Assembly: GCA_025642075.2 (NCBI GenBank) | Contig: JAODUO010000566.1 | Span: 78,501-142,500, forward strand | Length of the DNA: 64,000 bases | From: Ridgeia piscesae | Taxonomy: Eukaryota; Annelida; Polychaeta; Sabellida; Siboglinidae | Direction: 5' to 3' | In this document: in pieces, positions 15,109 to 47,981 of the stretch | Layout of the letters: each line of letters opens with the position of its first letter | Numbering within the stretch: position 1 is the first letter of the stretch | The notes under the pieces: generated by a model | Database searches by the model: none | The model's input: only the letters and a program-made list of their open reading frames with translations | Told to the model about the DNA's origin: nothing | Position numbers and translations under genes: made by a program

Positions 15109-17158
15109 TTTTCAACCTCACTTTTATACCCCTGCACTTTTATCGGTCGATAGTTTCAATGCACTTCCATTGCAACTATCCAGGGATAAAGGAAGTTCAG
15201 AGCAGGTTTCCTTCCATTTAGACTATGCTCATGTCTCACTCATCATGCCCCTTTCATTGTTGTTGTCATCATCTGTAATATTACTCTGTGGCTTGGTCAA
15301 ACATTAACACCACATACACTGTAGTTGGTTAATTAAACAACAAAGGTTCCTTCGTAATGTGACCAACACTACTGGCTTTTTGTATCACCTGTTAAATACT
15401 CTCTTGTAAGTAGTCATCATGCTATGTTATAACAACTGATTGTCACATGAGGTAGACAAGGATTTCTCCTTAGGTAGATGATGAGTTCCCATTGGGTAGT
15501 CTTTCATCAGGTAGGCAATAGTCTCTTTTGTAGACAGTCTACACATCTGCCACTGTCACACTGCTGTTGTTGCTGATCACAGAAACTCACTGTTGACTTA
15601 TCACTAGACCTAGTATCTTTGGCACATCTTCCAACTTTGTTGACTTCCCTTCCCCACAAGAGAGTACTTGACAACAGAAGGAATCTGAAAACATAGCAGT
15701 TGAATACTTATAAGACATATATAGCTAAGCAATAACCTAATATTGATAGATTAGGAAAAGCTATAAACTGTGCATGGGCATTTTTAAAAGGTATCCGCTC
15801 AGAAACACATTATGTGAAAGTCAAGTTACGTGAGCCTTGTTGTACCTCAAGAAATTGAAGGTAAGAAGCCGAATCCATGAATCAAGCAATAACCTATCTC
15901 TATCTTCATCGACATCTAGGCTCCTCTGCTCATGCAGGCCATTCTTACAGAGGTGACTGGATTAGTGCTAGCAGTGTGAATATGTTCAGAAATATAACTG
16001 AGAGTTAACTGACAAGGGTGGGTTATAAGGTGTAAAGTATGTGGAAAATTGTCAGATTCTTGATAAGCCAAAGGCTTCCTTGTCCATACACCATCCAGAG
16101 CTTGTAGCTCTAGTCAGCAATCTTGTTAAATTCTCCAACTCAGCCATAAATCATATCCAGAAAGTGCGATCAAAAGTACACCCCTTTGCTTCTGAATATG
16201 TAGATCCAATTTCTGATAGCTATTTTTCATAATTTTTTTAGCCATGCATTTTTGTCTTTACCTAATCTGCTGTATTATTACACATGCCATATAGGTTATT
16301 ATATTAGCCATGCCATATAGGCTATATTATAGCCTGTAGCTATGCCTATGCTATGACTTTACTCAGCCACGCCCACAATAAGGGCTATGGCTATGCCATG
16401 GACGGTCAGTATGAAGCTGTAAGAATAAGGACACGATTGCCACACATCATTTGCAAATAAAATGTGTTTGTCTGGTAAGTAATTAGTTCTCATCCAGCCG
16501 CTACTGGTTGTAGTTTTTAATTTTTTTTTTATATTAAAAACCACAATCAGTTAAGTTTTTTTTAATTAATACACCAGACGTTGACGATAGTGTTGGAGGA
16601 AGTGACTGATAAGTATGGAACTTCCATTTCGATGTGCAATTGTTTGTTTATATTATTGCATACTGAATGTATTTTTCTTTGTATTGTATTGTTCACTTGG
16701 AAATGAACTCCACTCACTCACCAACCCACCCATCTTAATATAACACTAATTATCGCCCACTTTTCGTACTTTGCTCTCCGTTTTCATAAAGAAAATGATG
16801 CCTGCCTTTCCTTTATTACTGTATTAATACTTGTATGATAACAAACACATTTTTTTTTAATTTTCCTAACCTTCAAAGAATCGAACACTATAAAACAATC
16901 GAAAATTTTTTAAATCATACCGTGCAATCGTTGTTTACATTTATAGTTGGGATAATGTGCATGTTGCCATCGATTCTTCCTCGGAAGTCGGGGCTGTTTG
17001 TGGCTGGCTGACCTCGTCGGCGAAGTCCCGAATTTCGCTTAGTCAAAGTAATTATTGTTTACTTCTGCCGTGAGAACAACGCAAATACTTGCTCCAATTT
17101 TAAGACGGATACATCTTCGCGCGCCTGGTCTTAAATAATAAAAAATTTGATTTATGTT
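15109..17158. other. Intergenic region between the two zinc-finger genes, left part
   Basis: Mostly unique AT-rich DNA. It contains a CR1-like LINE 3' fragment (16052-16132) and a stretch of short internal repeats (CCATATAGG/GGCTAT motifs, about 16285-16400). A TATAAAAG on the minus strand (15121-15128) lies only about 15 bases before the minus-strand gene's ATG. Confidence 0.5.
16052..16132 (+). mobile_element. CR1-like LINE, 3'-end fragment
   Basis: Matches the 3' UTR of the LINE copies ending at 47310 and 30319: GATAAGCCAAAGGCTTCCT, then CCATCCAGAG, a short stem, and the terminal AATCTTGTTAAAT. It is more diverged than the other two copies, so it is an older insertion. Confidence 0.8.
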
Positions 17159-21490: not shown

Positions 21491-21536
21491 CTGATGCTAA
21501 TGCCACAAGGTACCAACAAGAGCGACCTGACAAGAA

Positions 21537-23186
21537 ATGGATGAGCGACAAGCAACACATATGGCACAGAGAAAAGGAAACAGGAAATGTGATGACAGCA
21601 CCATTATAAATGACACTGTGGATGAGGCAAAAACCCATGTGAAGTCCAAAGTGCATGTGTGTATGTACTGTGCAAGGCCATTCAGTCAGTTGTATGTTCT
21701 CAAGCGCCACATTCGGACACATACTGGTGAGACACCTTTTAAGTGTTCCACGTGTGGTAGAGCATTTTCGGGGCAACGATCCCTAAAAGAACATGAACTT
21801 GATCATGTCGATACACTCCCATTTTTGTGTACAGCTTGTGGCAGACAGTTCAAACGCAGTCACGAGCTGAAAAGTCATAAGCGTGTCCACACTGGTGAGC
21901 GCCCATTCTCGTGCAGCATATGTGGAAAGGCCTTTGGTCATGCAACGACACTTTTGCGACACACTCGCACGCACTCGGATGAGAGACCACACATATGTGG
22001 GGCATGTAATCAAACTTTCCACCAGGTTAGTGCCTTGAAACGGCATGTACGAAGCCACAACGACACACATCCATACATATGCGAGGGGTGCAATCAGTGC
22101 TTCAGACAGATGAAGGATTCTCAGCTTCATATATGTCGGTCATCAAATCTTCCGCCGACTGTAAGTATACCACCTCCAACAAGAGTGCTGCTACGATGTA
22201 CTTTGTGTCTTAAAGAATACAAGTCACGTGCCGGGCTTGTGCATCACATAAAGACGCAGCATAATGTTGTGGAGAAATCTGCAAACGCCACCTCAACCTA
22301 CACGTGCGATGTTTGCTCAAAGGTGCTACACAGCATAGGTGGGTTGGCAACGCACAAACGGACACACAACGATGAACGCCCCTTTGCCTGCAATGTTTGT
22401 GGTGACAGGTTTGGTGACAAGGCTCACCTCCGCCGTCACGAGAAGCGTCACACGGGCGAGCGTATGACCTGTGTCATTTGTCACCATGGGTTCATCTCCC
22501 GCTGGCAAGTGCGACGTCATCTCGCACGTGTGCACAAACTGCCGCCCGATGCAGTAGAAGATGCGATGGCGATGTGCCGCCATCGTATTTTCAGTGTAGA
22601 TGGAACAGAAATCGACAAGAACGGTTCACAGTTGTTGTCGCCTAAAGAAACAACATGCATAAAGGAGGACTCTGCTGCTCCATCAGGTGTGGAGGAGGAC
22701 TGTGACCAGGCAGAGGTTTGCACGCCTGGACTTGAGCAACTTTCCAGTCATATGTGCACTACCATGTTAAACACTGACAACATTTCTCATTTGCTTTGCG
22801 ATACTAGCTTGCACGGGGACACCGAAAATGTGACGGGTGATATTAATCTAGAGTTGCCAGACGTTGATTTCGTGGAAGGAGCTATGGGAAAGCAGAGTGT
22901 ATTGCAGTCATTTTATGCCGTTGATGATGCCGAACCTGACATCACATGGTTGAGATCAGTAGACAGTGCTGGTGTGTCGTGGGACAACGGAAGCTGCAGT
23001 GACATGGACGCATTGACCGCTCCCACCATGGCCGGACTGTCCGAGGCTGTGGACACAGACGTTCAACTTGGAGATGATCACTTTGTTGTGTCCATCAATG
23101 GTCAGTTGCTTCTGCTGGACATGACCATGGCCGAGAATTGGTTGGGGGACGATCTGCTAGAGAATGGGTTCCCGAAAGGAGAATGA
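21537..23186 (+). CDS. C2H2 zinc-finger protein (ten fingers, acidic C-terminal tail)
   Basis: A single open frame of 549 residues, probably a nuclear transcription factor. Fingers run from residue 40 (HVCMYCARPFSQLYVLKRH) to 333 (MTCVICHHGFISRWQVRRH). The first four carry TGE[TR]PF-type linkers; the sixth (YICEGCNQCFRQMKDSQLH) is degenerate. Residues about 335-549 contain no fingers and are acidic (for example EEDCDQAEV, LPDVDFVEGAM, DDAEPDITW), which fits an activation or interaction region. A stop codon lies upstream in this frame at 21492, so the ATG at 21537 is the first usable start after the acceptor at 21490. The last three fingers resemble those of 13927-15108. No specific orthologue recognised. 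Confidence 0.9.
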   Translation: MDERQATHMAQRKGNRKCDDSTIINDTVDEAKTHVKSKVHVCMYCARPFSQLYVLKRHIRTHTGETPFKCSTCGRAFSGQRSLKEHELDHVDTLPFLCTACGRQFKRSHELKSHKRVHTGERPFSCSICGKAFGHATTLLRHTRTHSDERPHICGACNQTFHQVSALKRHVRSHNDTHPYICEGCNQCFRQMKDSQLHICRSSNLPPTVSIPPPTRVLLRCTLCLKEYKSRAGLVHHIKTQHNVVEKSANATSTYTCDVCSKVLHSIGGLATHKRTHNDERPFACNVCGDRFGDKAHLRRHEKRHTGERMTCVICHHGFISRWQVRRHLARVHKLPPDAVEDAMAMCRHRIFSVDGTEIDKNGSQLLSPKETTCIKEDSAAPSGVEEDCDQAEVCTPGLEQLSSHMCTTMLNTDNISHLLCDTSLHGDTENVTGDINLELPDVDFVEGAMGKQSVLQSFYAVDDAEPDITWLRSVDSAGVSWDNGSCSDMDALTAPTMAGLSEAVDTDVQLGDDHFVVSINGQLLLLDMTMAENWLGDDLLENGFPKGE

Positions 23187-27345: not shown

Positions 27346-27450
27346 TCACCTCTGGTTTGCCTCTCTCGCCAGATCCCTCGCATGGACCGGCTTGTTTGCA
27401 AGGATCTTCTCTATCTCACTCATCACGGCAGCCGTCATCTTGGGCACGAG
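27346..27450 (-). CDS. KCNAB: KCNAB exon N (last coding exon)
   Basis: Begins after TTGTTTGCAG, phase 0, LVPKMTAAVMSEIEKILANK and on to PVHARD...NQR, stop TGA (complement of 27346-27348). It corresponds to the C-terminal helix and tail (VLPKLSSSIIHEID in vertebrates). Its first 17 bases are copied in every unit of the adjoining 32-bp minisatellite. Confidence 0.92.
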   Translation of the reverse strand, partial: LVPKMTAAVMSEIEKILANKPVHARDLAREANQR

Positions 27451-27721
27451 CTGCAAACAACACTTATCATTTTAGGCACAAGCTCCAAGTAACACTTGTC
27501 ATCTTAGGCACAAGCTCCAAGCAACACTTGTCATCTTAGGCACGAGCTGCAAGCAACACTTATCATCTTAGGCATGAGCTGCAAGCAACACTTATCATCT
27601 TAGGCATGAGCTACAAGCAACACTTATCATCTTAGGCATGAGCTGCAGGCTACACTTTTCATCTTAGGCACGAGCTACAAGCAACACTTATCATCTTAGG
27701 CACGAGCTACAAGCAACAATT
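27451..27721. repeat. 32-bp minisatellite of the exon N splice junction, part 1
   Basis: About eight tandem 32-bp units starting exactly at the exon N acceptor. On the minus strand each unit reads CTCGTGCCTAAGATGA, then about 10 bases, then TTGCAG or TTGTAG. It therefore repeats the acceptor AG plus the first 17 exon bases with one or two changes. The array is interrupted at 27722 by a LINE and resumes at 30320. Confidence 0.95.
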
Positions 27722-30319
27722 GTGTAACATAGTTACAGGAAAGTCAACATTAACTGTTGGGTTAGTGTATCGGAGTCCAAACATAAGCATGGAAGAGAAT
27801 GAAAAAATACATAACGCTATCAAAGAAGTGAGTAAACGGGAATGTATTATTATGGGGGATTTTAACCATGGGCATATACAGTGGACATCTCTACAGAGTA
27901 CCGGGAGAGAGGATCAAGAGTTTTTAAATTTAGTACAAGATAGTTTCCTTTCTCAACATGTGTTAGAAGCAACCAGGGGCGAGAACGTGTTAGACATAGT
28001 ATTGAGCTCACAGAAGGAATTTGTTGATAATGTCAAGATATGTGAGCCACTGGGGTGTAGTGATCACAACCAAATACATTTTATCATCAAAGTAAGGGAG
28101 AACGGAATAGAAAAATAAGGTACAGGAAAAATTTTCACAAAGGAAGATATAAGGACATGAGGGAATATTTAGCAAAGATAGACTGGAATAACACACTGAA
28201 GAATAAGACAGCAACAGAATGCTGGAATATTTTAAAGAGTGAAATTGACTGCGTCGTTGACAAATTTGTCCCCTTGAAAAAACAGGGAAACGGTCAAAGA
28301 AGAAACACTTATCGAAGGAAGCCATTAGAAAAATCAAGTACAAGCAAATGATGTGGAAGACATATAGACATACCGGAAGTGAAGAAGACTATAGCATTTA
28401 TAAAGAAGCACTTAATCAAGCTACAGCTGAAATTAGAAATTCAAAGAGAAGCTACGAACAAAAAATAGCTTTTAATATAAAACATGACAGCAAGAGTTTT
28501 TATGCGTATGTTCGAAGTAAACAGAAAGTTCAGGATAAGGTCGGTCCTCTAGAAGGTAGTGATGGAAACATAATAACAGAGGGATTCTTAATGGCAGAAA
28601 ACCTAAATGAGTACTTTAGTTCGGTGTTTACCAGGGAAGATATTAGTATATTACCAGTACTTGAGACTAAGTTCGAAGGGAGAGAGTTTGACTATTTAGG
28701 ACAACTAATTGTAACCCCAACAATGGTAGCTATGAAAATAAGAGATATGAAGGATAATAAATCACCTGGAGTGGATGGGATTCCTCCCAAATTACTATTG
28801 GAAATTGTAGAACAAATCAGCATACCGCTTGCAGCAGTGTTCAATTTGTCATTAGAGGAGGGAATAGTTCCGTTAGAATGGAAGGAAGCAAACATTATAC
28901 CATTATTTAAAAAAGGTTCGAGAAACAAGTCAGAGAACTATAGACCAGTGAGTTTAACATCGGTGATTTGCAAACTATTAGAAAGACTAATTAAAGATCA
29001 CCTGGTTGATTTTCTTGTTAAAAATAAATTGATAAACCCATCTCAACATGGGTTTTTAAAAGCGAGGTCAGCTTAACAAATATGTTATGTTTTTGGAAGA
29101 TGTCACAAAGTGGCTAGATGAGGGATCACCAGTAGATATAATCTACTTAGATTTTAAAAGCCTTTGACAAAGTGCCACACCAAAGACTACTACTTAAACT
29201 AAAGGCCCATGGCATAGGAAATGGAATGATCAACTGGATAGAAAAATGGCTTATTGGTAGAAGACAAAGAGTAGTAGTTGATGGGGAGGTTTCAAACTGG
29301 AAACCGGTTTTGAGTGGAGTACCGCAGGGATCAGTACTGGGACCTATTTTATTCTTAATATATATCAATGATTTGGATAGTGACATAACAAGCAAGGTGT
29401 TGAAAGTTTGCGGACGACACAAAAGTCTTTAGGAAAATTAAAAGTGATGCAGATAGACAGCATTTACAAGATGATCTTAATAAGTTGATAGAATGGTCTC
29501 AGAAGTGGCAAATGCTGTTTAATTTTGGAAAGTGTAAGTGCCTTCACACAAGACATGGGAATGAAGATGCACAATATACAATGGGTGATACTGTACTAAA
29601 TACTACCTCAAAGGAAAAGGACTTAGGGTTCACTATTAGTGCTGACATGAAGACCATCAGAGCAGTGTAGACCGCATGAGGGAAACCAAATTCTTGGATT
29701 GAGGTGGGCGAAATATAAAATTTTAAGAAAAAAAGAACTATGCTAATATAGCTGTAGCAAAATAATAGTTAGGCCTCACTTAGAATGGTGACGTATACAA
29801 GCATGGAGACACCTACTTAAGAGAGGAGGATGTTACTAGAAAAGTACAAAGAGGGAAGCAACCATTGATATAAAACTCCAGGAATATTGGTTATGAAATG
29901 CGTCTAAAAAGAATGTGGGTTAACAACACCTGGAAACCAGAAGATTGAGAGGAGATCCGAGGAGGGTGTTTAAAATATTGAATGGATATGAAAATATTGA
30001 CAGAAATATTTTCACAGTCAAGGGAAGGAAGGACTAGAGGACATGGAACTTTTACATTAGCAAAGAAGCAGTATAGAGTAGATATTTAGAAAATTTTCAT
30101 TTTCACAGGAAGCAGTAAACGAATGGAACAGATTATCCGCTGATTGTTTAGGTGCTAGCAGTGTTAATATATTTAAAAAATAAAATTGACATATACCTAA
30201 GAAGGGCGGGGTATACTTAGATAGATAGGTTGGACTCTCGATAAGCCAAATGGCTTCATAGTCCACCTGCCATCTAGAGTGAATCTCTAGGTGGCAATCT
30301 TGTTAAATCTTGTTAAATA
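27722..30319 (+). pseudogene. 5'-truncated CR1-like LINE inserted inside a minisatellite
   Basis: Nearly identical to the copy at 44714-47310, but missing the start of the endonuclease. It begins at the TGTAACATAGTTACAGG position and ends with the same AATCTTGTTA repeat. It is embedded in the 32-bp array; AACA is present on both sides, so any target-site duplication is at most about 4 bp. The frame is broken at 28093, 28290, 29068, 29090, 29155 and 29403, mostly in homopolymers. From about 29650 to 30200 divergence rises sharply. Endonuclease MGDFNHGHIQW and RT motifs [21 protein letters not shown] are visible in pieces. Confidence 0.93.
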
Positions 30320-30945
30320 AAACACTTATCATCTTAGGCACGAGCTACAAAACACTTATCATCTTAGGCACGAGCTACAAGCAACACTTATCATCTTAGG
30401 CATGAGCTGCAAGCAACACTTATCATCTTAGGCATGAGCTACAAGCAACACTTATCATCTTAGGCATGAGCTGCAGGCTACACTTTTCATCTTAGGCATG
30501 AGCTACAAGCAACACTTATCATCTTAGGCACAAGCTACAAGCAACACTTATCATCTTAGGCATGAGCTGCAAGCAACACTTATCATCTTAGGCATGAGCT
30601 ACAAGCAACACTTATCATCTTAGGCATGAGCTACAAGCAACACTTATCATCTTAGGCATGAGCTGCAGGCTACACTTTTCATCTTAGGCATGAGCTACAA
30701 GCAACACTTATCATCTTAGGCACGAGCTACAAGCAACACTTATCATCTTAGGCACGAGCTGCAAGCAACACTTATCATCTTAGGCATGAGCTTCAAGCAA
30801 CACTTATCATCTTAGGCACGAGCTGCAAGCAACACTTATCATCTTAGGCATGAACTGCAAGCAACACTTCACTTATCATCTTAGCATGAGCTACAAGCAA
30901 TACTTCACTGATCATGTTAGGCATGAGCTACAAGCAACACTGCAC
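30320..30945. repeat. 32-bp minisatellite of the exon N splice junction, part 2
   Basis: About twenty further units of the array begun at 27451, continuing after the LINE. The last few units (30850-30945) are irregular in length. Nearly all keep the AG and the copied exon start. Confidence 0.95.
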
Positions 30946-30988: not shown

Positions 30989-31077
30989 CCTGATAGCTTG
31001 TATGTCCTCATAAAGCTGTTCGACTGACGTTGCTCCCAACAGTACACACTGCACTGTGTCATTCTTCAGGCACCACG
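30989..31077 (-). CDS. KCNAB: KCNAB exon M
   Basis: Between TTGTTGCAG and AGG|GTAGGT. Encodes AWCLKNDTVQCVLLGATSVE and QLYEDIQAIR, the C-terminal barrel strand and cofactor-binding segment (vertebrate VLLGASNADQLMENIGAIQ). 89 bp, phase 1 to 0. Confidence 0.94.
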
Positions 31078-31513: not shown

Positions 31514-31634
31514 CAATGGCTAGCTGGGCGAGAGTGCAGCCAAGTCTGTGGGTGATGGTGCTCAGCTCTCGCAGTTGCATCTGCTGTTTTCGGCCATCGT
31601 CACTGAGAATGCGCTCCTTCAGCCAGCCATAGCC
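31514..31634 (-). CDS. KCNAB: KCNAB exon L
   Basis: Between TGTTGCAG and ATTG|GTAAGA, 121 bp, phase 0 to 1. Encodes GYGWLKERILSDDGRKQQMQ and LRELSTITHRLGCTLAQLAI. Its first 12 bases (GGCTATGGCTGG) are repeated about 100 times in the adjoining array, together with the acceptor. Confidence 0.95.
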
Positions 31635-34600
31635 CTGCAACATTACACATGGTGTCAGAAGTGGGACAAGACCAACCATAGCCCTGCAACATTACACATG
31701 GTGTCAGAAGTGGGACAACACCAGCCATAGCCCTGCAACATTACACATGGTGTCAGAAGTGGGACAAGACCAACCATAGCCCTGCAACATTACACATGGT
31801 GTCAGAAGTGGGACAAAACCAGCCATAGCCCTGCAACATTACACATGGTGTCAGAAGTGGGAAAAGACCAGCCATAGCCCTGCAAAATTACACATGGTGT
31901 CAGAAGTGGGACAAGACCAGCCATAGCCCTGCAAAATTACACATGGTGTCAGAAGTGGGACAAGACCAGCCATAGCTTGGCAATATTATACATGGTGTCA
32001 GAAGTGGGACAATACCAGCCATAGCCCTGCAACATTACACATGGTGTCAGAAGTGGGACAAGACCAGCCACTGCCCTGCAACATTACACATGGTGTCAGA
32101 AGTGGGACAAGACCAGCCACAGCCCTGCAACATTACACATGGTGTCAGAAGTGACACAAGACCAGCCACAGCCCTGCAACATTATACATGGTGTCAGAAG
32201 TGGGACAAGACCAGCCACAGCCCTGCAACATTACACATGGTGTCAGAAGTGGGACAAGACCAGCCATAGCCCTGCAACATTACACATGGTGTCAGAAGTG
32301 GGACAAGACCAGCCACAGCCTGGCAACATTAAACATGGTGTCAGAAGTGACACAAGACCAGCCATAGCCTGGGAACATTACACATGGTGTCAGAAGTGAC
32401 ACAAGACCAGCCATAGCCCTGCAACATTACACATGGTGTCAGAAGTGGGACAAGACCAGCCATAGCCCTGCAACATTACACATGGTGTCAGAAGTGACAC
32501 AAGACCAGCCATAGCCCTGCAACATTACACATGGTGTCAGAAGTGACACAAGACCAGCCATAGCCCTGCAACATTACACATGGTGTCAGAAGTGGCACAA
32601 GACCAGCCATAGCCCTGCAACATTACACATGGTGTCAGAAGTGACACAAGCCCAAGCCATAGCCCTGCAACATTACACATGGTGTCAGAAGTGACACAAG
32701 ACCAGCCATAGCCCTGCAACATTACACATGGTGTCAGAAGTGACACAAGACCAGCCATAGCCCTGCAACATTACACATGGTGTCAGAAGGGGGACAAGCC
32801 CAAGCCATAGCCCTCAACATTACACATGGTGTCAAAAGGGGGACAAGACCACCCATAGCCCGCAACACTACACATGGTGTCAGAAGTGGGACAAGACCAC
32901 CCATAGCCCTGCAACATTACACATGGTGTCAGAAGTGGGACAAGACAAGCCATAGCCCTGCAACATTACACATGGTGTCAGAAGTGACACAAGACCAGCC
33001 ATAGCCCTGCAACATTACACATGGTGTCAGAAGTGGGACAAGACAAGCCATTGCCCTGCAACATTACACATGGTGTCAGAAGTGACACAAGACCAGCCAT
33101 AGCCCTGCAACATTACACATGGTGTCAGAAGTGGCACAAGACCAGCCATAGCCCTGCAACATTACACATGGTGTCAGAAGTGGCACAAGACCAGCCATAG
33201 CCCTGCAACATTACACATGGTGTCAGAAGTGGCACAAGACCAGCCATAGCCCTGCAACATTACACATGGTGTCAGAAGTGACACAAGACCAGCCATAGCC
33301 CTGCAACATTACACATGGTGTCAGAAGTGACACAAGCCCAAGCCATAGCCCTGCAACATTACACATGGTGTCAGAAGTGACACAAGACCAGCCATAGCCC
33401 TGCAACATTACACATGGTGTCAGAAGTGGGACAAGACCAGCCATAGCCCTGCAACATTACACATGGTGTCAGAAGTGACACAAGACCAGCCATAGCCCTG
33501 CAACATTACACATGGTGTCAGAAGTGACACAAGACCAGCCATAGCCCTGCAACATTACACATGGTGTCAGAAGTGACACAAGACCAGCCATAGCCCTGCA
33601 ACACTACACATGGTGTCAGAAGTGGGACAAGACCAGCCATAGCCCTGCAACATTACACATGGTGTCAGAAGTGGGACAAGACAAGCCATAGCCCTGCAAC
33701 ATTACACATGGTGTCAGAAGTGACACAAGACCAGCCATAGCCCTGCAACATTACACATGGTGTCAGAAGTGGGACAAGACCAGCCATAGCCCTGCAACAT
33801 TACACATGGTGTCAGAAGTGGGACAAGACAAGCCATAGCCCTGCAACATTACACATGGTGTCAGAAGTGACACAAGACCAGCCATAGCCCTGCAACATTA
33901 CACATGGTGTCAGAAGTGGGACAAGACAAGCCATAGCCCTGCAACATTACACAAGGTGTCAGAAGTGACACAAGACCAGCCATAGCCCTGCAACATTACA
34001 CATGGTGTCAGAAGTGGCACAAGACCAGCCATAGCCCTGCAACATTACACATGGTGTCAGAAGTGGCACAAGACCAGCCATAGCCCTGCAACATTTCACA
34101 TGGTGTCAGAAGTGGGAAAAGACCAGCCATAGCCCTGCAACATTACACATGGTGTCAGAAGTGGCACAAGACCAGCCATAGCCCTGCAACATTACACATG
34201 GTGTCAGAAGTGACACAAGACAAGCCATAGCCCTGCAACATTACACATGGTGTCAGAAGTGACACAAGACCAGCCATAGCCCTGCAACATTACACATGGT
34301 GTCAGAAGTGACACAAGACCAGCCATAGCCCTGCAACATTACACATGGTGTCAGAAGTGACACAAGACCAGCCATAGCCCTGCAACATTACACATGGTGT
34401 CAGAAGTGACACAAGACAAGCCATAGCCCTGCAACATTACACATGGTGTCAGAAGTGACACAAGACCAGCCATAGCCCTGCAACATTACACATGATGTCA
34501 GAAGTGACACAAGACAAGCCATAGCCCTGCAACATTACACATGGTGTCAGAAGTGACACAAGACCAGCCATAGCCCTATAACATTACACATGGTGTCAGA

Positions 34601-36617
34601 AGTGACACAAGACCAGCCATAGCCCTGCAACATTACACATGGTGTCAGAAGTGACACAAGACCAGCTGTAGCCCTGCAACATTACACATGGTGTCAGAAG
34701 TGACACAAGACCAGCCATAGCCCTACAACATTACACATGGTGTCAGAAGTGACACAAGACCAGCTATAGCCCTATAACATTACACATGGTGTCAGAAGTG
34801 ACACAAGACCAGCTATAGCCCTGCAACATTACACATGGTGTCAGAAGTGGGACAAGACAAGCCATAGCCCTGCAACATTACACATGGTGTCAGAAGTGAC
34901 ACAAGACCAGCCATAGCCCTGCAACATTACACATGGTGTCAGAAGTGACACAAGACCAGCCATAGCCCTGCAACATTACACATGGTGTCAGAAGTGACAC
35001 AAGACCAGCCATAGCCCTGCAACATTACACATGGTGTCAGAAGTGGGACAAGACCAGCCATAGCCCTGCAACATTACACATGGTGTCAGAAGTGGCACAA
35101 GACCAGCCATAGCCCTACAACATTACACATGGTGTCAGACGTGGGACAAGACCAGCTATAGCCCAGCAACACTACACATGGTGTCAGAAGTGGGACAAGA
35201 CCAGCTATAGCCCAGCAACACTACACATGGTGTCAGAAGTGGGACAAGACAAGCCATAGCCCTGCAACATTACACATGGTGTCAGAAGTGACACAAGACC
35301 AGCCATAGCCCTGCAACATTACACATGGTGTCAGAAGTGGGACAAGACAAGCCATAGCCCTGCAACATTACACATGGTGTCAGAAGTGACACAAGACCAG
35401 CCATAGCCCTGCAACATTACACATGGTGTCAGAAGTGACACAAGACCAGCCATAGCCCTGCAACATTACACATGGTGTCAGAAGTGGCACAAGACCAGCT
35501 ATAGCCCTGCAACATTACACATGGTGTCAGAAGTGGCACAAGACAAGCCATAGCCCTGCAACATTACACATGGTGTCAGAAGTGACACAAGACCAGCCAT
35601 AGCCCTGCAACATTACACATGGTGTCAGAAGTGGGACAAGACCAGCCATAGCCCTGCAACACTACACATGGTGTCAGAAGTGGGACAAGACCAGCCATAG
35701 CCCTGCAACATTACACATGGTGTCAGAAGTGGGACAAGACAAGCCATAGCCCTGCAACATTACACATGGTGTCAGAAGTGGGACAAGACAAGCCATAGCC
35801 CTGCAACATTACACATGGTGTCAGAAGTGGGACAAGACCAGCCATAGCCCTGCAACACTACACATGGTGTCAGAAGTGGGACAAGACCAGCCATAGCCCT
35901 GCAACATTACACGTGGTGTCAGAAGTGGGACAAGACAAGCCATAGCCCTGCAACATTACACGTGGTGTCAGAAGTGACACAAGACCAGCCATAGCCCTGC
36001 AACATTACACATGGTGTCAGAAGTGACACAAGACCAGCCATAGCCCTGCAACATTACACATGGTGTCAGAAGTGACACAAGACCAGCCATAGCCCTACAA
36101 CATTACACATGGTGTCAGAAGTGACACAAGACCAGCCATAGCCCTACAACGTTACACATGGTGTCAGAAGTGACACAAGACCAGCCATAGCCCTGCAACA
36201 TTACACATGGTGTCAGAAGTGGCACAAGACCAGCCATAGCCCTACAACATTACACATGGTGTCAGAAGTGACACAAGACCAGCCATAGCCCTACAACGTT
36301 ACACATGGTGTCAGAAGTGGGACAAGACCAGCCATAGCCCTGCAACATTACACATGGTGTCAGAAGTGACACAAGACCAGCCATAGCCCTACAACGTTAC
36401 ACATGGTGTCAGAAGTGGGACAAGACCAGCCATAGCCCTGCAACATTACACATGGTGTCAGAAGTGGCACAAGACCAGCCATAGCCCTACAACATTACAC
36501 ATGGTGTCAGAAGTGACACAAGACCAGCCATAGCCCTACAACGTTACACATGGTGTCAGAAGTGGGACAAGACCAGCCATAGCCCTGCAACATTACACAT
36601 GGTGTCAGAAGTGGGAA
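31635..36617. repeat. 49-bp minisatellite of the exon L 3' splice junction (about 100 copies)
   Basis: Starts exactly at the exon L acceptor and runs about 4.98 kb, about 101-102 units of 49 bp. On the minus strand each unit carries CTTCTGACACC (branch-point-like CTGAC, its A about 20 bases before the AG), TGTAATGTTGCAG and then the copied exon start GGCTATGGCTGG. Three common central variants (GGGACA, GACACA, GGCACA on the plus strand) are mixed along the array. Short open frames in it are not genes. Confidence 0.98.
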
Positions 36618-37100
36618 ATTACACATCATGTCAGAGGTGGGACAACTGCACTGAAACTACTATTAGAATGACCCACAGACTGGTATTCTTAAGGACACCA
36701 GTTTCCCAAGACACCTGGTATGAGAGTGGTGTCCTTAGTGACATGGACTCTACTTAGACAAACTCTCCTGAGATGGAGTGTCTCTTGAAAGTTGAGAGGT
36801 GGTCTCCTGGCAGTGCCCATGAGACAGAAAACTCTTGACAGTTCCTTGTGCAAGTTGGTCTCCAGAGACATTCAATCTCTTTAAGAGACAGAGGGTCTCT
36901 TTATGTCTCTTGATAGACATACAGTCTCTTGAGACAGATGGTCTCTTGAGACAGATAGTCTCTTGATACAGCTGCTTGACATTGATGGTACAGTCTATCT
37001 TGGTACAGTCTAAATAGGCAGTCTCTTCAGATAGATGTAGTCTTGAGATAGTATTTTGTGACAGACCATTGGTCTCTTGATGTGTAGACACTGAGACCAA
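36618..37100. repeat. Degenerate GTCTCTTGAGACAG repeat
   Basis: Diverged units built from GTCTCTTGAGACAGAT-like motifs, itself a partial palindrome, most regular at 36920-36970. It continues from the outer edge of the 49-bp array into the intron. Confidence 0.65.
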
Positions 37101-37764: not shown

Positions 37765-37862
37765 CTTCAACGCGGGTCGACTGTTTGGTTTTATTTCACC
37801 GTCCATGTATTTTCCCGTGATCTGGCCGCAAGCTAGTGGGGACCATGTCATGCAGCCAAAGC
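37765..37862 (-). CDS. KCNAB: KCNAB exon K2 (alternative to K1)
   Basis: 98 bp between CTTCTCGTAG and TTGAAG|GTGCGT. Encodes [20 protein letters not shown] and [13 protein letters not shown]. It has the same phases (1 to 0) as K1 and is one codon longer. If both were joined, K2 would be read GCT TTG GCT GCA TGA, an immediate stop, so the two must be mutually exclusive. Relative to vertebrate PPYSRASLK, the Tyr before Ser-Arg is replaced by Asn. Confidence 0.9.
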
Positions 37863-38468
37863 CTACGAGAAGAACCCAATAAGGTGAGGGGCCATCTCAG
37901 TATTACAGCCGATGAAATTCAAGAAAGTTAGCGTCTTGGTGAAGTAACCTAAATTGTAGATGTAGTCATTATGGATAGATTTTATAACAACAGTTACTGA
38001 AACAACATTTCCTGACAATCTTATAACAGAAAAGCCATCTTGTTGGATAAAAAAACCTGTGATGTGTTATTTTTAGAAAATGGTTATTTTTGCAACAAAA
38101 AAGGTTTGTAAGAATGGTCTTTGCATGAAAATGTTGTAACAAGAGACATGATTACGTTTGTCGTAAGAGTGGTCTAAGTAAGGAGGTTTTATTCTAACAA
38201 GACATTTGTTATGTAACCTATATTTTTATACATGCAGTCATAAGACTTACTTTGAAATGTGTTTTTATTATATTGGCATAGAGAATTCTGTGCTTTGTGT
38301 TAGTTTAGCAACATAAACTGACATGAAGACCCTGTAATGTAATGTTGTCATTACAGGGAGGTTTTGTTGTAACCATGGCAACAACTACAAGCGCATGCCA
38401 TGCAGCAAAACAACACCAATCATCGTGGGCAACGCATGCTGCTACGGTGGTCATCAAGTCAAACTGAC

Positions 38469-38563
38469 CTTATTAGCTGCTCTGGAGTAGATGGGAACGC
38501 CATCGTCGTATTTTCCCGTGAGGAAGCCACATGCGAGTGGAGACCACGATATTGTGCCCAAAC
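38469..38563 (-). CDS. KCNAB: KCNAB exon K1 (alternative to K2)
   Basis: 95 bp between AATTTGTCAG and AATAAG|GTCAGT. Encodes [20 protein letters not shown] and [12 protein letters not shown]. This is the form closest to vertebrate Kv-beta (WSPLACGIVSGKYD, PPYSRA), with the Tyr-Ser-Arg kept. The polypyrimidine tract before its acceptor is weak. Confidence 0.93.
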
Positions 38564-41934: not shown

Positions 41935-42544
41935 CTGTAACAGAACCCACATCAACTGATTTATCCAACAACTAACTCTGACTTCTAACATTCCAAAAGA
42001 TGACTAAGCCACTTGTTATAAGGCGACCAGGAATATTCTCACATAAACAAGAGAGAGAGGTAAGTGTCTTAGAGAATAAACTGCACTGCTCACGTTTGAA
42101 AGCAACCATGTGACCTAGTCATGTGATCTAGTCATGTGATGTGGTCACATGTTGCTGATAGTCATGGCATGTAAGAATAGTGAACAAACCCACCTTCCTT
42201 TGTTGCTTATGTGGGATTGGATCGGGACCTTAAAGGGAGGCTGCCTGGTCTTTTTCAATCAGTTGGCAGAGCAGTAATTTCTGCAGTCTAATAAATGGGA
42301 AAGTTAAACATCAAAGGCTATTGCTGCTAACTCTGCTCGCCAAGGCATCATTGCCGATCAATTCTGTTTCGAAACTGGATGTTTTGTTTACCGTTTGAAT
42401 GTTTTGCGTGTGGAATCTTTCAAATTGCAAACACTGTTCCAAGCTTCAGAAACTGACTAAACACACTCAGTAAACCTTCAACATGTATGATGTAGTCATA
42501 AGAATGTAATATGAAATGGAAAAATAAAACCTAGGAGCTTGGCA

Positions 42545-42887
42545 TGTAGAAGGGTGAGGCACGTAGGAGGGCACGGCGCATAGAAGGGCGTGGCACGTAG
42601 GAGGGCGTGACACGTAGGAGGGTGTGACATGTAGGAGGGTGTGGCACATAAGAGGGCATGGCACGTAGAAGGGTGTGGCACGCAGAAGGGTGTGGCACGT
42701 AGAAGGGCGTGGCAAGTAGAAGGGCGTGGCAAGTAGGAGGGCGTGGCAAATAGAAGGGCGTGGCACGTAGAAGGGCGTGGCAAGTAGAAGGGCGTGGCAA
42801 GTAGGAGGGCGTGGCACGTAGGAGGGCGTGGCATGTAGAAGGGTGTGGCACGTAGAAGGGCGTGGCACGTAGAAGGGTGTGCCATAC
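42545..42887. repeat. 17-bp minisatellite abutting the exon H donor
   Basis: About 20 units, plus-strand form GTAGAAGGGCGTGGCAC with GAGG/GAAG variants. It begins directly at the exon H donor. On the transcribed (minus) strand each unit includes CCTTCTAC or CCTCCTAC, the former being the exact complement of the exon-end/donor sequence GTAGAAGG. Long Pro/His/Tyr-rich frames across it are repeat artefacts. Confidence 0.95.
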
Positions 42888-42974
42888 CTTCTACAGGAGT
42901 GTGTGGGTCTGACTTGTTGGCAAACACGATGTCGACGTAGTCCATCTGCAGCCGCTCCAGACTTGCCTTCAGCC
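42888..42974 (-). CDS. KCNAB: KCNAB exon H
   Basis: 87 bp between GTGTTTCAG and GTAGAAG|GTATGG, phases 1 to 1. Encodes [20 protein letters not shown] and KSDPHTPVE. The Asn of FAN is the conserved catalytic-site residue of Kv-beta. Confidence 0.95.
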
Positions 42975-44339: not shown

Positions 44340-47216
44340 TGGTGGCCAGGCACAGAGAAGCCAAATACTAGAGGCATAGATAAAGATAGCAAAAAGACAT
44401 CAGCAAAGAACAGCCTGGAAAGCCCTACGGAATTTGGTTATAAATGTGTTTGTTTAAATGCAAGGAGCATAGTAAACAAAAGAAATGAACTAAACATTAT
44501 GGTAGAAGATATTGACCCTCACATAATAGGTATAACTGAATCTTGGGCCACACCTGATATATCAGATGCTGAATTAGGAATGACAGGGTATGTAATGTTT
44601 AGGAAAGATAGATTAGGAAGAAGGGGAGGCGGAGTTATTTTATATATTAAAGAATCCATCCAAGCTTATGAAATACAATTAGTAAAAGAAGCAGAATGTG
44701 AAGATGCTGTCTGGTGTAACATAGTTACAGGAAAGTCAACATTAACTGTTGGGTTAGTGTATCGGAGTCCAAACATAAGCATGGAAGAGAATGAAAAAAT
44801 ACATAACGCTATCAAAGAAGTGAGTAAACGGGACTGTATTATTATGGGGGATTTTAACCATGGGCATATACAGTGGACATCTCTACAGAGTACCGGGAGA
44901 GAGGATCAAGAGTTTTTTAATTTAGTACAAGATAGTTTCCTTTCTCAACATGTGTTAGAAGCAACCAGGGGCGAGAACGTGTTAGACATAGTATTGAGCT
45001 CACAGAAGGAATTTGTTGATAATGTCAAGATATGTGAGCCACTGGGGTGTAGTGATCACAACCAGATACATTTTATCATCAAAGTAAAGGGAGAACGGAA
45101 TAGAAAAATAAAGTACAGGAAAAATTTTCACAAAGGAAGATATAAGGACATGAGGGAATATTTAGCAAAGATAGACTGGAATAACACACTGAAGAATAAG
45201 ACAGCAACAGAATGCTGGAATATTTTAAAGAGTGAAATTGACTGCGTCGTTGACAAATTTGTCCCCTTGAAAAAACAGGGGAAACGGTCAAAGAAGAAAC
45301 ACTTATCGAAGGAAGCCATTAGAAAAATCAAGTACAAGCAAATGATGTGGAAGACATATAGACATACCGGAAGTGAAGAAGACTATAGCATTTATAAAGA
45401 AGCACTTAATCAAGCTACAGCTGAAATTAGAAATTCAAAGAGAAGCTACGAACAAAAAATAGCTTTTAATATAAAACATGACAGCAAGAGTTTTTATGCA
45501 TATGTTCGAAGTAAACAGAAAGTTCAGGATAAGGTCGGTCCTCTAGAAGGTAGTGATGGAAACATAATAACAGAGGGATTCTTAATGGCAGAAAACCTAA
45601 ATGAGTACTTTAGTTCGGTGTTTACCAGGGAAGATATTAGTATATTACCAGTACTTGAGACTAAGTTCGAAGGGAGAGAGTTTGACTATTTAGGACAACT
45701 AATTGTAACCCCAACAATGGTAGCTATGAAAATAAGAGATATGAAGGATAATAAATCACCTGGAGTAGATGGGATTCCTCCCAAATTACTATTGGAAATT
45801 GTAGAACAAATCAGCATACCGCTTGCAACAGTGTTCAATTTGTCATTAGAGGAGGGAATAGTTCCGTTAGAATGGAAAGAAGCAAACATTATACCATTAT
45901 TTAAAAAAGGTTCGAGAAACAAGTCAGAGAACTATAGACCAGTGAGTTTAACATCGGTGATTTGCAAACTATTAGAAAGACTAATTAAAGATCACCTGGT
46001 TGATTTTCTTGTTAAAAATAAATTGATAAACCCATCTCAACATGGGTTTTTAAAAGCGAGGTCATGCTTAACAAATATGTTATGTTTTTTGGAAGATGTC
46101 ACAAAGTGGCTCGATGAGGGATCACCAGTAGATATAATCTACTTAGATTTAAAAAAAGCCTTTGACAAAGTGCCACACCAAAGACTACTACTTAAACTAA
46201 AGACCCATGGCATAGGAAATGGAATGATCAACTGGATAGAAAAATGGCTTATTGGTAGAAGACAAAGAGTAGTAGTTGATGGGGAGGTTTCAAACTGGAA
46301 ACCGGTTTTGAGTGGAGTACCGCAGGGATCAGTACTGGGACCTATTTTATTCTTAATATATATCAATGATTTGGATGATGACATAACAAGCAAGGTGTTG
46401 AAGTTTGCGGACGACACAAAAGTGTTTAGGAAAATTAAAAGTGATGCAGATAGACAGCATTTACAAGATGATCTTAATAAGTTGATAGAATGGTCTGAGA
46501 AGTGGCAAATGCTGTTTAATTTTGGAAAGTGTAAGTGCCTTCACACAGGACATGGGAATGAAGATGCACAATATACAATGGGTGATACTGTACTAAATAC
46601 TACCTCAAAGGAAAAGGACTTAGGGTTAACTATTAGTGCTGACATGAAGGTATCAGAGCAGTGTGGAATTGCAGCAGCGAAGGGAAACCAAATTCTTGGA
46701 TTAATTAGGCGAAATATAGTGTACAAAGAAAAAGAACTAATAATACCGCTGTATAAAACAATAGTTAGGCCTCACTTAGAATATTGTATACAAGCATGGA
46801 GGCCATATCGCAAGAAGGATATTGATATGCTAGAAAGAGTACAAAGGAGAGCAACCAAAATGATACAAAAACTCAGGAATATTAGTTATGAAATGCGTCT
46901 AAAAGAATGTGGCTTAACAACACTAGAAACCAGAAGATTGAGAGGAGATCAGATTGAGGTGTTTAAAATATTGAATGGATATGAAAATATTGACAGAAAT
47001 ATTTTTTTCACAGTCAAGGAAGAGAGAAGGACTAGAGGACATGGAGTTACATTAGCAAAGAAGCAGTGTAGACTAGATATTAGAAAATTTTCATTTTCAC
47101 AAAGAACAGTAAACGAATGGAACAGATTATCAGCTGATTGTGTAGGTGCTAGCAGTGTTAATATATTTAAAAATAAAATTGACATATACCTAAGAAGGCG
47201 GGGTATACTTAGATAG
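44340..47216 (+). CDS. CR1-like LINE ORF2: endonuclease-reverse transcriptase, near intact
   Basis: One unbroken frame from 44340 (after a stop at 44337), with the first Met at 44499 giving 905 residues. The endonuclease begins before that Met (CLNARSIVNKRNELNIM), so translation probably starts upstream or the copy lost its true start. Endonuclease motifs: ITES (12-15), MGDFN (116-120), SDHN (185-188). RT motifs: SPGVDGIPPKL, RPVSLTS, DLKKAFDK (550-557), GVPQGS (606-611), FADD (636-639). The C-terminal LYKTIVRPHLEYC and ERVQRRATK segment is typical of CR1-group elements. It is antisense within the KCNAB intron between G and H. No stop or frameshift is seen, so the element was recently active. 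Confidence 0.93.
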   Translation, partial: WWPGTEKPNTRGIDKDSKKTSAKNSLESPTEFGYKCVCLNARSIVNKRNELNIMVEDIDPHIIGITESWATPDISDAELGMTGYVMFRKDRLGRRGGGVILYIKESIQAYEIQLVKEAECEDAVWCNIVTGKSTLTVGLVYRSPNISMEENEKIHNAIKEVSKRDCIIMGDFNHGHIQWTSLQSTGREDQEFFNLVQDSFLSQHVLEATRGENVLDIVLSSQKEFVDNVKICEPLGCSDHNQIHFIIKVKGERNRKIKYRKNFHKGRYKDMREYLAKIDWNNTLKNKTATECWNILKSEIDCVVDKFVPLKKQGKRSKKKHLSKEAIRKIKYKQMMWKTYRHTGSEEDYSIYKEALNQATAEIRNSKRSYEQKIAFNIKHDSKSFYAYVRSKQKVQDKVGPLEGSDGNIITEGFLMAENLNEYFSSVFTREDISILPVLETKFEGREFDYLGQLIVTPTMVAMKIRDMKDNKSPGVDGIPPKLLLEIVEQISIPLATVFNLSLEEGIVPLEWKEANIIPLFKKGSRNKSENYRPVSLTSVICKLLERLIKDHLVDFLVKNKLINPSQHGFLKARSCLTNMLCFLEDVTKWLDEGSPVDIIYLDLKKAFDKVPHQRLLLKLKTHGIGNGMINWIEKWLIGRRQRVVVDGEVSNWKPVLSGVPQGSVLGPILFLIYINDLDDDITSKVLKFADDTKVFRKIKSDADRQHLQDDLNKLIEWSEKWQMLFNFGKCKCLHTGHGNEDAQYTMGDTVLNTTSKEKDLGLTISADMKVSEQCGIAAAKGNQILGLIRRNIVYKEKELIIPLYKTIVRPHLEYCIQAWRPYRKKDIDMLERVQRRATKMIQKLRNISYEMRLKECGLTTLETRRLRGDQIEVFKILNGYENIDRNIFFTVKEERRTRGHGVTLAKKQCRLDIRKFSFSQRTVNEWNRLSADCVGASSVNIFKNKIDIYLRRRGILR

Positions 47217-47310
47217 ATAGGTTGGACTCTCGATAAGCCAAATGGCTTCCTAGTCCACCTGCCATCTAGAGTTGAATCTCTAGGTGGCAATCTTGTTAAA
47301 TCTTGTTAAA
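47217..47310 (+). mobile_element. CR1-like LINE 3' UTR and terminal repeat
   Basis: Contains GATAAGCCAAATGGCTTCC, a CTAGAG...CTCTAG stem and two copies of AATCTTGTTA at the end. The same 3' end is seen at 30225-30319 and 16052-16132, so it is the family's conserved terminus, probably the RT recognition end. Confidence 0.9.
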
Positions 47311-47981
47311 TCTCTCAGTTACGAACTCGATCAACAGTGGGATTATAGGGCTACAGTGCAGTCTGTGAAAGTGGCCCAAAGCGCTCAGTTGTGACGCACT
47401 GGACCACAGTTCTATGTGCTGTGACATAATAGTGATGTGACAGAGTATTCTATTATGCAATGCAAAGTTCTTTGTGTTGTTGTTATGTTCTGGGCCAAAG
47501 TTATTTAGGCTGTCACACAATCGTTCAAAGAGGTCCCAATCAGACCAGAGCTGAATCACTCTTTCGGTACAGGACATCCCAAGTACACTGACCGTTTCTT
47601 TTATAATTTACCCGTTGGTGGAAATTATCTAATTTTAAACTAAGTGTGTATCAATGAAAATGAAGTTGTAGCGAATGGTATGGCTTTGAATGGGTTAGCA
47701 GTAAATATTGAATTAATCAGGTTGTTTTTGACATCTGCAAGCATCAAGTAGACAAGTATATGACGAGGTGATAACAGTTTGACTGGTGTGAAAAGGATGT
47801 ATTCGTGTGGTCAGTTGAAACGAAATGCAGTGCTTCCATGACAAGTTACTGACACATACAAAACCAAAAGTGTTCTGCATGCCAGAAAACTTAACTTAAA
47901 CATCATGACCATCACATCGCATCAGTCAACACATTGCGGTGGCATATGTTTTGTCTCTCCAAAATTGTAAGAGGAACTTAC
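47311..47981 (-). other. KCNAB: KCNAB intron between G and H, part right of the LINE
   Basis: Unique-looking intron sequence; no exon or repeat recognised. Confidence 0.6.

What the first reader, a model, noticed from the sequence alone, without database searches (positions are those of the whole stretch)
31514..36617. About 100 tandem decoy 3' splice sites in front of one KCNAB exon
The 49-bp minisatellite is a multiplication of the exon L intron-exon junction. On the transcribed strand each unit has a CTGAC branch-point-like motif, about 20 bases, TTGCAG and the first 12 bases of exon L (GGCTATGGCTGG). The true acceptor is the innermost member of a row of about 100 near-identical ones. I worked out the frames. 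One decoy up adds 49 nt (1 mod 3) and puts exon L into a frame reading ...CAT TCT CAG TGA. Two or more reach CAC TTC TGA in the second consensus unit. So splicing to any consensus decoy gives an early stop before two downstream introns, a setting for nonsense-mediated decay. Copy number could therefore act as a length-dependent brake on Kv-beta output, or the cell must strongly prefer the last AG.
Basis: partly seen in the sequence, partly recalled or inferred. Interest (0 to 1): 0.92.

Follow-up and report, generated by a model that had tools for sequence, protein, structure and literature searches.

The report
Splice acceptor copied a hundred times
In a potassium-channel helper gene, probably from a deep-sea tubeworm, the boundary where one exon begins is repeated about 100 times in tandem and that of the last exon 28 times; the cell likely ignores every copy but the innermost, which would make the gene a natural test of how splicing picks one of many identical sites.

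Summary
Window 31623-36614 is a 49-bp array of 102 full units (minus strand) copying the intron-exon 11 boundary of an intact Kv-beta reading frame. 99 units carry the acceptor AG: 98 decoys plus the true site at 31634. 72 of 98 decoys match the true site over -20..+3. All 98 predict an early stop more than 55 nt before the last junction, so the frame arithmetic is right. Unreported: the terminal exon's acceptor (27450) is multiplied too, in 28 copies of a different 32-bp unit, split by a LINE. The other 24 of 26 junctions have no crossing copy.

[quoted passage not shown] Best reading: two mirage minisatellites, with far more units than the 3 and 6 reported for one amphioxus globin gene, likely spliced past because exon enhancers and exon-wise proximity favour the innermost site. 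The proposed length-dependent NMD brake is possible but nothing found here supports it. No transcript data could be examined. Host: probably a vestimentiferan tubeworm (Ridgeia or close kin), by protein identity.

The parts
31623..36614 (-). Array B: 49-bp minisatellite, 102 full units copying the last 37 nt of the intron and the first 12 nt of exon 11; 99 units with an acceptor AG
   Evidence: TRF, unit decomposition, junction scan, acceptor count
36615..36642 (-). Outer edge of array B: 26-bp partial unit without acceptor
31514..31634 (-). Exon 11 (121 nt); true acceptor TTGCAG|GGCTATGGCTGGCTGAAGG, donor TTG|GTAAGA
   Evidence: exon map and intact reading frame
27435..27718 (-). Array C, inner part: 32-bp unit, 8.9 copies, spanning the acceptor of terminal exon 13
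   Evidence: TRF, junction scan, unit list
30321..30941 (-). Array C, outer part: same 32-bp unit, 19.2 copies, separated from the inner part by a LINE
27346..27450 (-). Exon 13 (terminal coding exon, LVPKMTAAV...NQR stop); true acceptor TTTGCAG|CTCGTGCCC
27722..30318 (+). LINE copy inserted inside array C, aligned at 95.4% identity to a second copy at 44714-47311
   Evidence: reverse-transcriptase domain found in the ORF of the second copy
42540..42888 (-). Array A: 17-bp x about 20 array that starts at about intron nt 4 after the donor of exon 7; abuts the junction and does not copy it
42888..42974 (-). Exon 7, whose donor abuts array A
38469..38563 (-). Exon 10a, predicted mutually exclusive alternative
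37765..37862 (-). Exon 10b, predicted mutually exclusive alternative, used in the Ridgeia gene model
30989..31077 (-). Exon 12, between the two junction arrays

Best explanation
The 49-bp minisatellite is a tandem amplification of the boundary between the intron and exon 11 of a Kv-beta gene (102 full units, 99 with an acceptor AG), the same kind as the amphioxus 'mirages', and the splicing machinery likely passes over all 98 decoys and uses only the innermost acceptor. Shown: the array copies 37 nt of intron and 12 nt of exon; a second array with a different 32-bp unit does the same to the terminal exon's acceptor; 72 of 98 decoys are letter-identical to the true site over -20..+3, so for them that stretch cannot tell decoy from true site; the reading frame across 13 exons is intact with the innermost acceptors, and the Ridgeia gene model uses them. 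Inferred: the choice is made by what lies beyond the copied stretch. Purine-rich GAA/GAG enhancer-like triplets begin at +15 of exon 11 and are almost absent from the array. The true site gives a 121-nt exon between long introns, whereas the outermost decoy would give 5071 nt, so exon definition would favour the innermost site. Predicted as a minor help: neighbouring units fold onto each other, hiding decoy AGs, while the edge copy is exposed. Array growth likely came by slippage or unequal exchange without selection for splicing.
For: Junction scan: 102 and 28 crossing matches (self included) at two acceptors, self only at the other 24 of 26 junctions. Decoy identity: 72 of 98 identical over -20..+3, 48 of 98 over -20..+12, 14 of 98 over all 49 nt. 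GAA/GAG: 2 in 4986 nt of array B against 6 in 121 nt of exon 11; 8 in 888 nt of array C against 9 in 105 nt of exon 13; introns 1-10 average 2.05 per 100 nt. Intact 334/335-codon frame. The Ridgeia piscesae protein P0001 is identical to the 10b isoform over 306 residues, through exons 11-13. Units evolve in concert: neighbours differ by 2.38 against 2.89 when shuffled, 0 of 5000 shuffles as low. Precedent: mirages do not seem to interfere with regular splicing (PMC3087553, passages; restated in PMC3902484, passage); CBS 844ins68 uses the downstream copy (PMC2630376, passages); under exon definition sites closest across the exon are favoured (PMC9225289, passages and section 9). Accessibility: true AG ranks 1 of 96 at a 150-nt window in B, and 1 of 9 in the inner part of C.
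Against: No RNA data were available, so use of the innermost site rests on gene models and precedent. Competing acceptors favour the upstream one in human data, a tendency said to be significantly reduced for long-intron exons. The Ridgeia model was built from homology, ab initio and RNA-seq predictions combined, so it may hide decoy use. The GAA/GAG contrast comes from one unit repeated, so it is one observation per array, and some exons of this gene are as poor as its introns (exon 1 2.0, exon 10a 2.1, exon 8 2.3 per 100). The accessibility contrast is not specific: in model arrays of 12 consensus units, shuffled units still put the true site above the decoys in 99% (150 part-shuffles), and 94% and 73% (70 full shuffles each, B and C), and 9%, 10% and 43% of them reach the observed difference; at a 240-nt window the true site ranks 2 of 96. 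The highest mirage copy number in the passages that I saw is 6, so harmlessness at about 100 copies is an extrapolation.
Confidence: 0.72

Rival explanations
1. Length-dependent brake: a share of transcripts splices to decoys, gains a premature stop and is destroyed by nonsense-mediated decay, so Kv-beta output falls as copy number rises.
For: 98 of 98 decoys give an early stop more than 55 nt before the last exon junction; 72 of 98 are identical to the true site over -20..+3; the upstream acceptor is favoured among competing human sites on the whole.
Against: Amphioxus mirages and CBS 844ins68 do not behave so. A search for the decoy tail returned no protein that carries it (1 hit of 2 candidates, the normal Ridgeia protein); only one named vestimentiferan was among the 120 hits listed, so this is weak. 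AG positions are not better kept than other unit positions.
Confidence: 0.12
2. Spliceosome sink: the decoys are bound by SF1, U2AF and U2 but rarely joined, slowing intron removal and causing retention of this intron, as decoy exons do in OGT.
For: 97 of 98 decoys keep CTGAC upstream and its 5 positions carry 1 change in 99 units. Decoy exons are thought to promote retention while rarely being spliced in (PMC12017769, passages).
Against: Decoy exons have both an acceptor and a donor; array B has no good donor: 566 of 569 GT sites score 5 or less of 9 against the donor consensus, 3 score 6, while the gene's 13 donors score 6 to 9. Low variation at the branch-like motif is post hoc, and the units share ancestry.
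Confidence: 0.1
3. Assembly artefact: the array is a mis-assembly or its copy number is wrong.
For: The published Ridgeia assembly is Illumina-based with contig N50 of 10.4 kb, which is unlikely to resolve such an array; a tandem array of this size can be collapsed or expanded.
Against: The window has 64000 bases and no N, which points to a long-read assembly. The units carry point variants with local similarity, and array C shares variant units on both sides of a LINE.
Confidence: 0.04

Closest known systems
Amphioxus 'mirages' (Adh3, globins BflGb6 and BflGb9; similar repeats in PGBD5)
   Same: [quoted passage not shown] many copies keep the splice signal; concerted evolution inside the cluster (PMC3087553 passages; PMC3902484 passage).
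   Different: 6 and 3 units in the two BflGb6 haplotypes, units of 150-160 bp there and 10-72 bp in Adh3; here 102 and 28 units of 49 and 32 bp, two acceptors in one gene, probably in an annelid. RT-PCR evidence exists for amphioxus, none here.
Human CBS 844ins68
   Same: [quoted passage not shown] the machinery strongly favours the downstream copy (PMC2630376, passages; that passage says 'donor' sites, the title of the Romano 2002 reference says 3' splice site).
   Different: One 68-bp duplication, a polymorphism in people; here 99 acceptors at 49-nt spacing.
Human CBS 31-bp VNTR (c.1444_1467+7, 16-21 copies)
   Same: By its published name a minisatellite over an exon end and the first intron bases, so probably a multiplied donor; the title of Lievers 2001 in the reference list links it to reduced CBS activity, which would favour the brake reading.
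   Different: Donor side, fewer copies; the Lievers paper itself was not read.
Variable internal tandem repeats at exon-intron boundaries of human duplicated genes
   Same: Tandem repeats at a boundary, said sometimes to activate cryptic splice sites and form novel introns (PMC2812944, passages).
   Different: Repeats inside exons of recent human paralogues, taken as a route to new introns; repeat size and copy number were not seen in the passages.
Decoy exons in retained introns (OGT)
   Same: Non-productive splice sites inside an intron that could engage splicing factors (PMC12017769, passages).
   Different: Decoy exons have both splice sites; these units are tandem acceptor copies without a good donor.

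Membership tests
Mirage minisatellite | Tandem repeat unit spans an intron-exon boundary | tested here: met
   Exon 11 acceptor 102 crossing matches, exon 13 acceptor 28, self included
Mirage minisatellite | Many copies keep the splice signal | tested here: met
   AG in 99 of 102 full units of B and 28 of 28 listed units of C
Mirage minisatellite | Concerted evolution inside the cluster | tested here: met
   B: neighbouring units more alike than in any of 5000 shuffles, on the 99 units of 49 nt
Mirage minisatellite | Edge units less homogenised | tested here: inconclusive
   B: inner 12 units differ from consensus by 1.5 on average, middle by 0.89; C: outer 3 differ by 3-10 and inner 3 by 4-6, but middle units reach 4, and 8 at the LINE border; no statistical test was made
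Mirage minisatellite | Copy number varies between alleles or cells | not testable with these tools
   One haplotype only
Mirage minisatellite | Regular splicing is not disturbed | not testable with these tools
   No RNA data; the Ridgeia gene model uses the true acceptors, which is indirect
Decoy exon promoting intron retention | Both an acceptor and a donor in the decoy | tested here: not met
   566 of 569 GT sites of array B score 5 or less of 9 against the donor consensus and 3 score 6; the 13 real donors score 6-9. In C all 81 GT sites score 5 or less (simple consensus count)
NMD-coupled splicing switch | Non-productive choice gives an early stop more than 50-55 nt before the last junction | tested here: met
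   98 of 98 decoys of array B, with exon 10a upstream
NMD-coupled splicing switch | Non-productive isoform is made and rises when NMD is blocked | not testable with these tools
   No RNA data

The most novel reading that the evidence does not exclude
A fast-mutating minisatellite acts as a splicing rheostat: about 100 equal acceptors titrate U2AF and U2 snRNP or divert a share of transcripts into decay, so that the length of the array, and hence each individual's allele, sets Kv-beta output. A second junction array at the terminal exon would then set the share of C-terminally truncated protein.
Probability: 0.12. Interest if true: 0.85.

Novelty: new member of a known kind. Interest (0 to 1): 0.52.

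Why it matters
How the spliceosome chooses among identical acceptors is an old question (the proximity rule against exon context). Here nature offers 99 acceptors at 49-nt spacing, 72 of the 98 decoys identical to the true one over -20..+3, in a gene whose frame tolerates only the innermost. Two different arrays in one gene give a replicate. If splicing is clean, local splice-site sequence is shown to be far from sufficient; if not, array length is a mutable dial on expression. It also suggests that mirages, which under that name I saw described only in amphioxus, occur in annelids.

Tried and rejected
Selection on the decoys: the AG positions vary more than the typical unit position (6 and 3 non-major letters of 99, some of them one-base shifts that keep an AG), so there is no sign of upkeep of the acceptors; the branch-like CTGAC has 1 change over 5 positions x 99 units, suggestive but post hoc.

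RNA structure as the specific chooser: the true AG is the most exposed of 96 (150-nt window) or second (240-nt) (95 of the 98 decoys, those followed by GGC), but shuffled units show the same direction in 99%, 94% and 73%, so it is mostly a general edge effect; stability itself is below that of shuffles (z +2.1 for 3 units, +3.8 for the last 10).

Decoy-derived proteins: one search for a protein bearing the array B decoy tail returned only the normal Ridgeia protein; tubeworm coverage in that database looks thin, so this says little. No such search was made for array C.

Coincidence of two junction arrays: under random placement of the founding unit in the gene, the chance that 2 or more of 12 arrays (period 10 or more, array C halves merged) span an acceptor is 0.0009; given that array B was the reason for looking, the fairer figure is at least one more among the other 11, 0.030 (two searches gave 0.0008 and 0.028 with one short array left out). 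Suggestive of junctions as hot spots, not proof.

The same array in public DNA: an exact 24-base core had 0 matches in viral contigs and genome contigs, as expected for an animal sequence. No Rfam match at gathering scores and no tRNA in the window.

Literature: 10 searches (listings with title and abstract start). I saw in them no junction array of this copy number and no repeat called a mirage outside amphioxus; passages were read in 8 papers and one section in full. The library lacks most subscription papers and the Adh3 paper.
Full report
What was checked. The gene on the minus strand encodes a Kv-beta (aldo/keto reductase, PF00248) subunit. Exons were placed by tblastn with a Kv-beta-2 query recalled from memory, refined by AG/GT and frame, and confirmed by an uninterrupted 334- or 335-codon frame ending in a stop, by Pfam and, for exons 11-12, by a match to solved Kv-beta-2 chains. 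The upstream start of the gene was not sought.

The array. TRF gives 49 bp x 101.9 at 31623-36614. On the gene's strand each unit reads 37 nt of intron, ending TTGCAG in most, then the first 12 nt of exon 11. There are 102 full units and one 26-bp partial at the outer edge. 99 of 102 keep the acceptor AG: the true site and 98 decoys. The three without it read TTGCTG (two) and TTGCGG (one). CTGAC precedes the AG in 97 of 98 decoys; its A is 21 nt before the exon at the true site. 72 of 98 decoys are identical to the true site over -20..+3, 48 over -20..+12, and 14 over all 49 nt; 66 of 98 match exon 11 for exactly 12 nt and then depart.

Frames. One unit up, the stop is at +81 nt (CAG TGA). 83 of 98 decoys stop at +75 nt (TTC TGA); the remaining 14 stop at +24 to +174. 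All 98 stops lie more than 55 nt before the last junction with exon 10a upstream; with exon 10b only one of the 115 AGs of the span, the true site, reaches the natural stop. Standard NMD would apply if decoys were used (established knowledge).

A second junction array. The same scan of all 26 mapped junctions (13 acceptors, 13 donors; blastn E <= 0.01) shows one other multiplied site: the acceptor of terminal exon 13, at 28 places on the gene's strand, self included. Its 32-bp unit (8.9 copies at 27435-27718, 19.2 copies at 30321-30941) is by eye unlike the 49-bp unit. A LINE (27722-30318, 95.4% identical to another at 44714-47311) lies inside it. A marked variant unit (AAAGTGTAGCCTGCAG) occurs on both sides of the LINE, twice outside at 192-bp spacing and once inside, so the array had probably expanded before the LINE arrived. 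The 27 decoys there would stop after 4 to 27 codons instead of 34. As no junction lies downstream, the result would be a truncated protein rather than standard NMD. All 28 listed units keep AG; the two decoys nearest the exon read GAG instead of CAG or TAG. Unlike in array B, no decoy of C is identical to its true site over -20..+3 (0 of 27), so there the local sequence could help the choice. A third array (17 bp x 20, 42540-42881) abuts the donor of exon 7 without copying it.

How the true site is likely chosen. Most decoys of B equal the true site locally, so the choice must rest on context. (a) Exon context: GAA/GAG triplets, used here as a crude stand-in for purine-rich enhancers, occur 6 times in the 121 nt of exon 11, first at +15, just past the copied 12 nt, and 2 times in 4986 nt of array; for exon 13 and array C the figures are 9 in 105 and 8 in 888. 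Since one unit is repeated, this is one contrast per array; introns 1-10 average 2.05 per 100 nt, and exons 1, 8 and 10a are about as low. (b) Proximity: exon 11 has long introns on both sides (6130 and 436 nt). A study of human splicing, read in passages and in section 9, reports that under exon definition the sites closest across the exon are favoured, but also that competing acceptors on the whole favour the upstream one, and that this preference is reduced for long-intron exons (PMC9225289). (c) Local folding: the true AG is the most exposed of 96 at a 150-nt window and second at 240 nt, and first of 9 in the inner part of array C. Controls show this is mainly a general edge effect. All three are inferences; none is shown to act.

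Kind and precedent. [quoted passage not shown] a second paper names PGBD5, Adh and troponin C (PMC3902484, passage). The Adh3 paper itself is not held. Human CBS has a duplicated junction (844ins68) of which the downstream copy is used, and a 31-bp VNTR that by its name runs over an exon end and the first intron bases (PMC2630376, passages). Boundary repeats in human paralogues are said sometimes to give novel introns (PMC2812944, passages). Arrays B and C have a unit over a boundary and keep the signal; in B neighbours are more alike than in 5000 shuffles; more diverged edges are seen but not tested. I therefore file them as new members of a known kind, of extreme copy number. In ten paper searches I saw no repeat called a mirage outside amphioxus and none of this size; the library is incomplete. 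They are not decoy exons: array B holds no good donor (566 of 569 GT sites score 5 or less of 9, 3 score 6; the 13 real donors 6 to 9).

Host. The best protein match is Ridgeia piscesae NP493_566g01019 (P0001). It is identical to the 10b isoform over 306 of 306 residues from the first codon of exon 3, and its three leading residues are the translation of the 9 nt before exon 3 in the window. The published Ridgeia assembly is short-read with contig N50 of 10.4 kb (PMC9921365, passages), which does not fit a gapless 64-kb window with a 5-kb array (no N). The window is thus probably a long-read assembly of Ridgeia or a close vestimentiferan; this is inference.

Against my reading. No RNA was examined. 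The gene model that uses the true sites combines homology, ab initio and RNA-seq predictions, and which of these carried this gene is not known. At about 100 copies, harmlessness is extrapolated from a few. A brake or a retention effect remains possible and is given as the novel case at 0.12.

Noticed in passing
27346-30941: A second splice-acceptor array (32-bp unit, 28 copies) at the terminal exon of the same gene, split by a LINE; its decoys would truncate the C-terminus.
   Followed up: yes
42540-42888: A 17-bp x 20 array begins at about the fourth intron base after the exon 7 donor. Its units are complementary to the exon end (GTAGAAGG/CCTTCTAC), and the donor is predicted to sit in a stable hairpin (-21 kcal/mol, z -2.8, mean unpaired probability 0.15). 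Not unique: donor 8 has z -3.1 and donor 11 an unpaired probability of 0.05.
   Followed up: partly
37765-38563: Exons 10a and 10b look mutually exclusive: exactly one keeps the frame, both or none bring an early stop. The divergent 10b is the one in the Ridgeia model.
   Followed up: partly
27482-27514: The two decoys nearest the true acceptor of array C read GAG, a poorer acceptor (recalled) than the CAG or TAG of 25 of the 28 listed units; could be selection or one duplicated change.
   Followed up: no
30470-30662 and 27642: A variant unit of array C recurs at 192-bp spacing on the outer side of the LINE and once on the inner side, suggesting a higher-order repeat older than the LINE insertion.
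   Followed up: partly
1877-2758: ORF on the + strand with a SPRY domain (SPSB-like by recalled similarity); C2H2 zinc-finger ORFs at 21534-23180 (+) and 13933-15111 (-).
   Followed up: no
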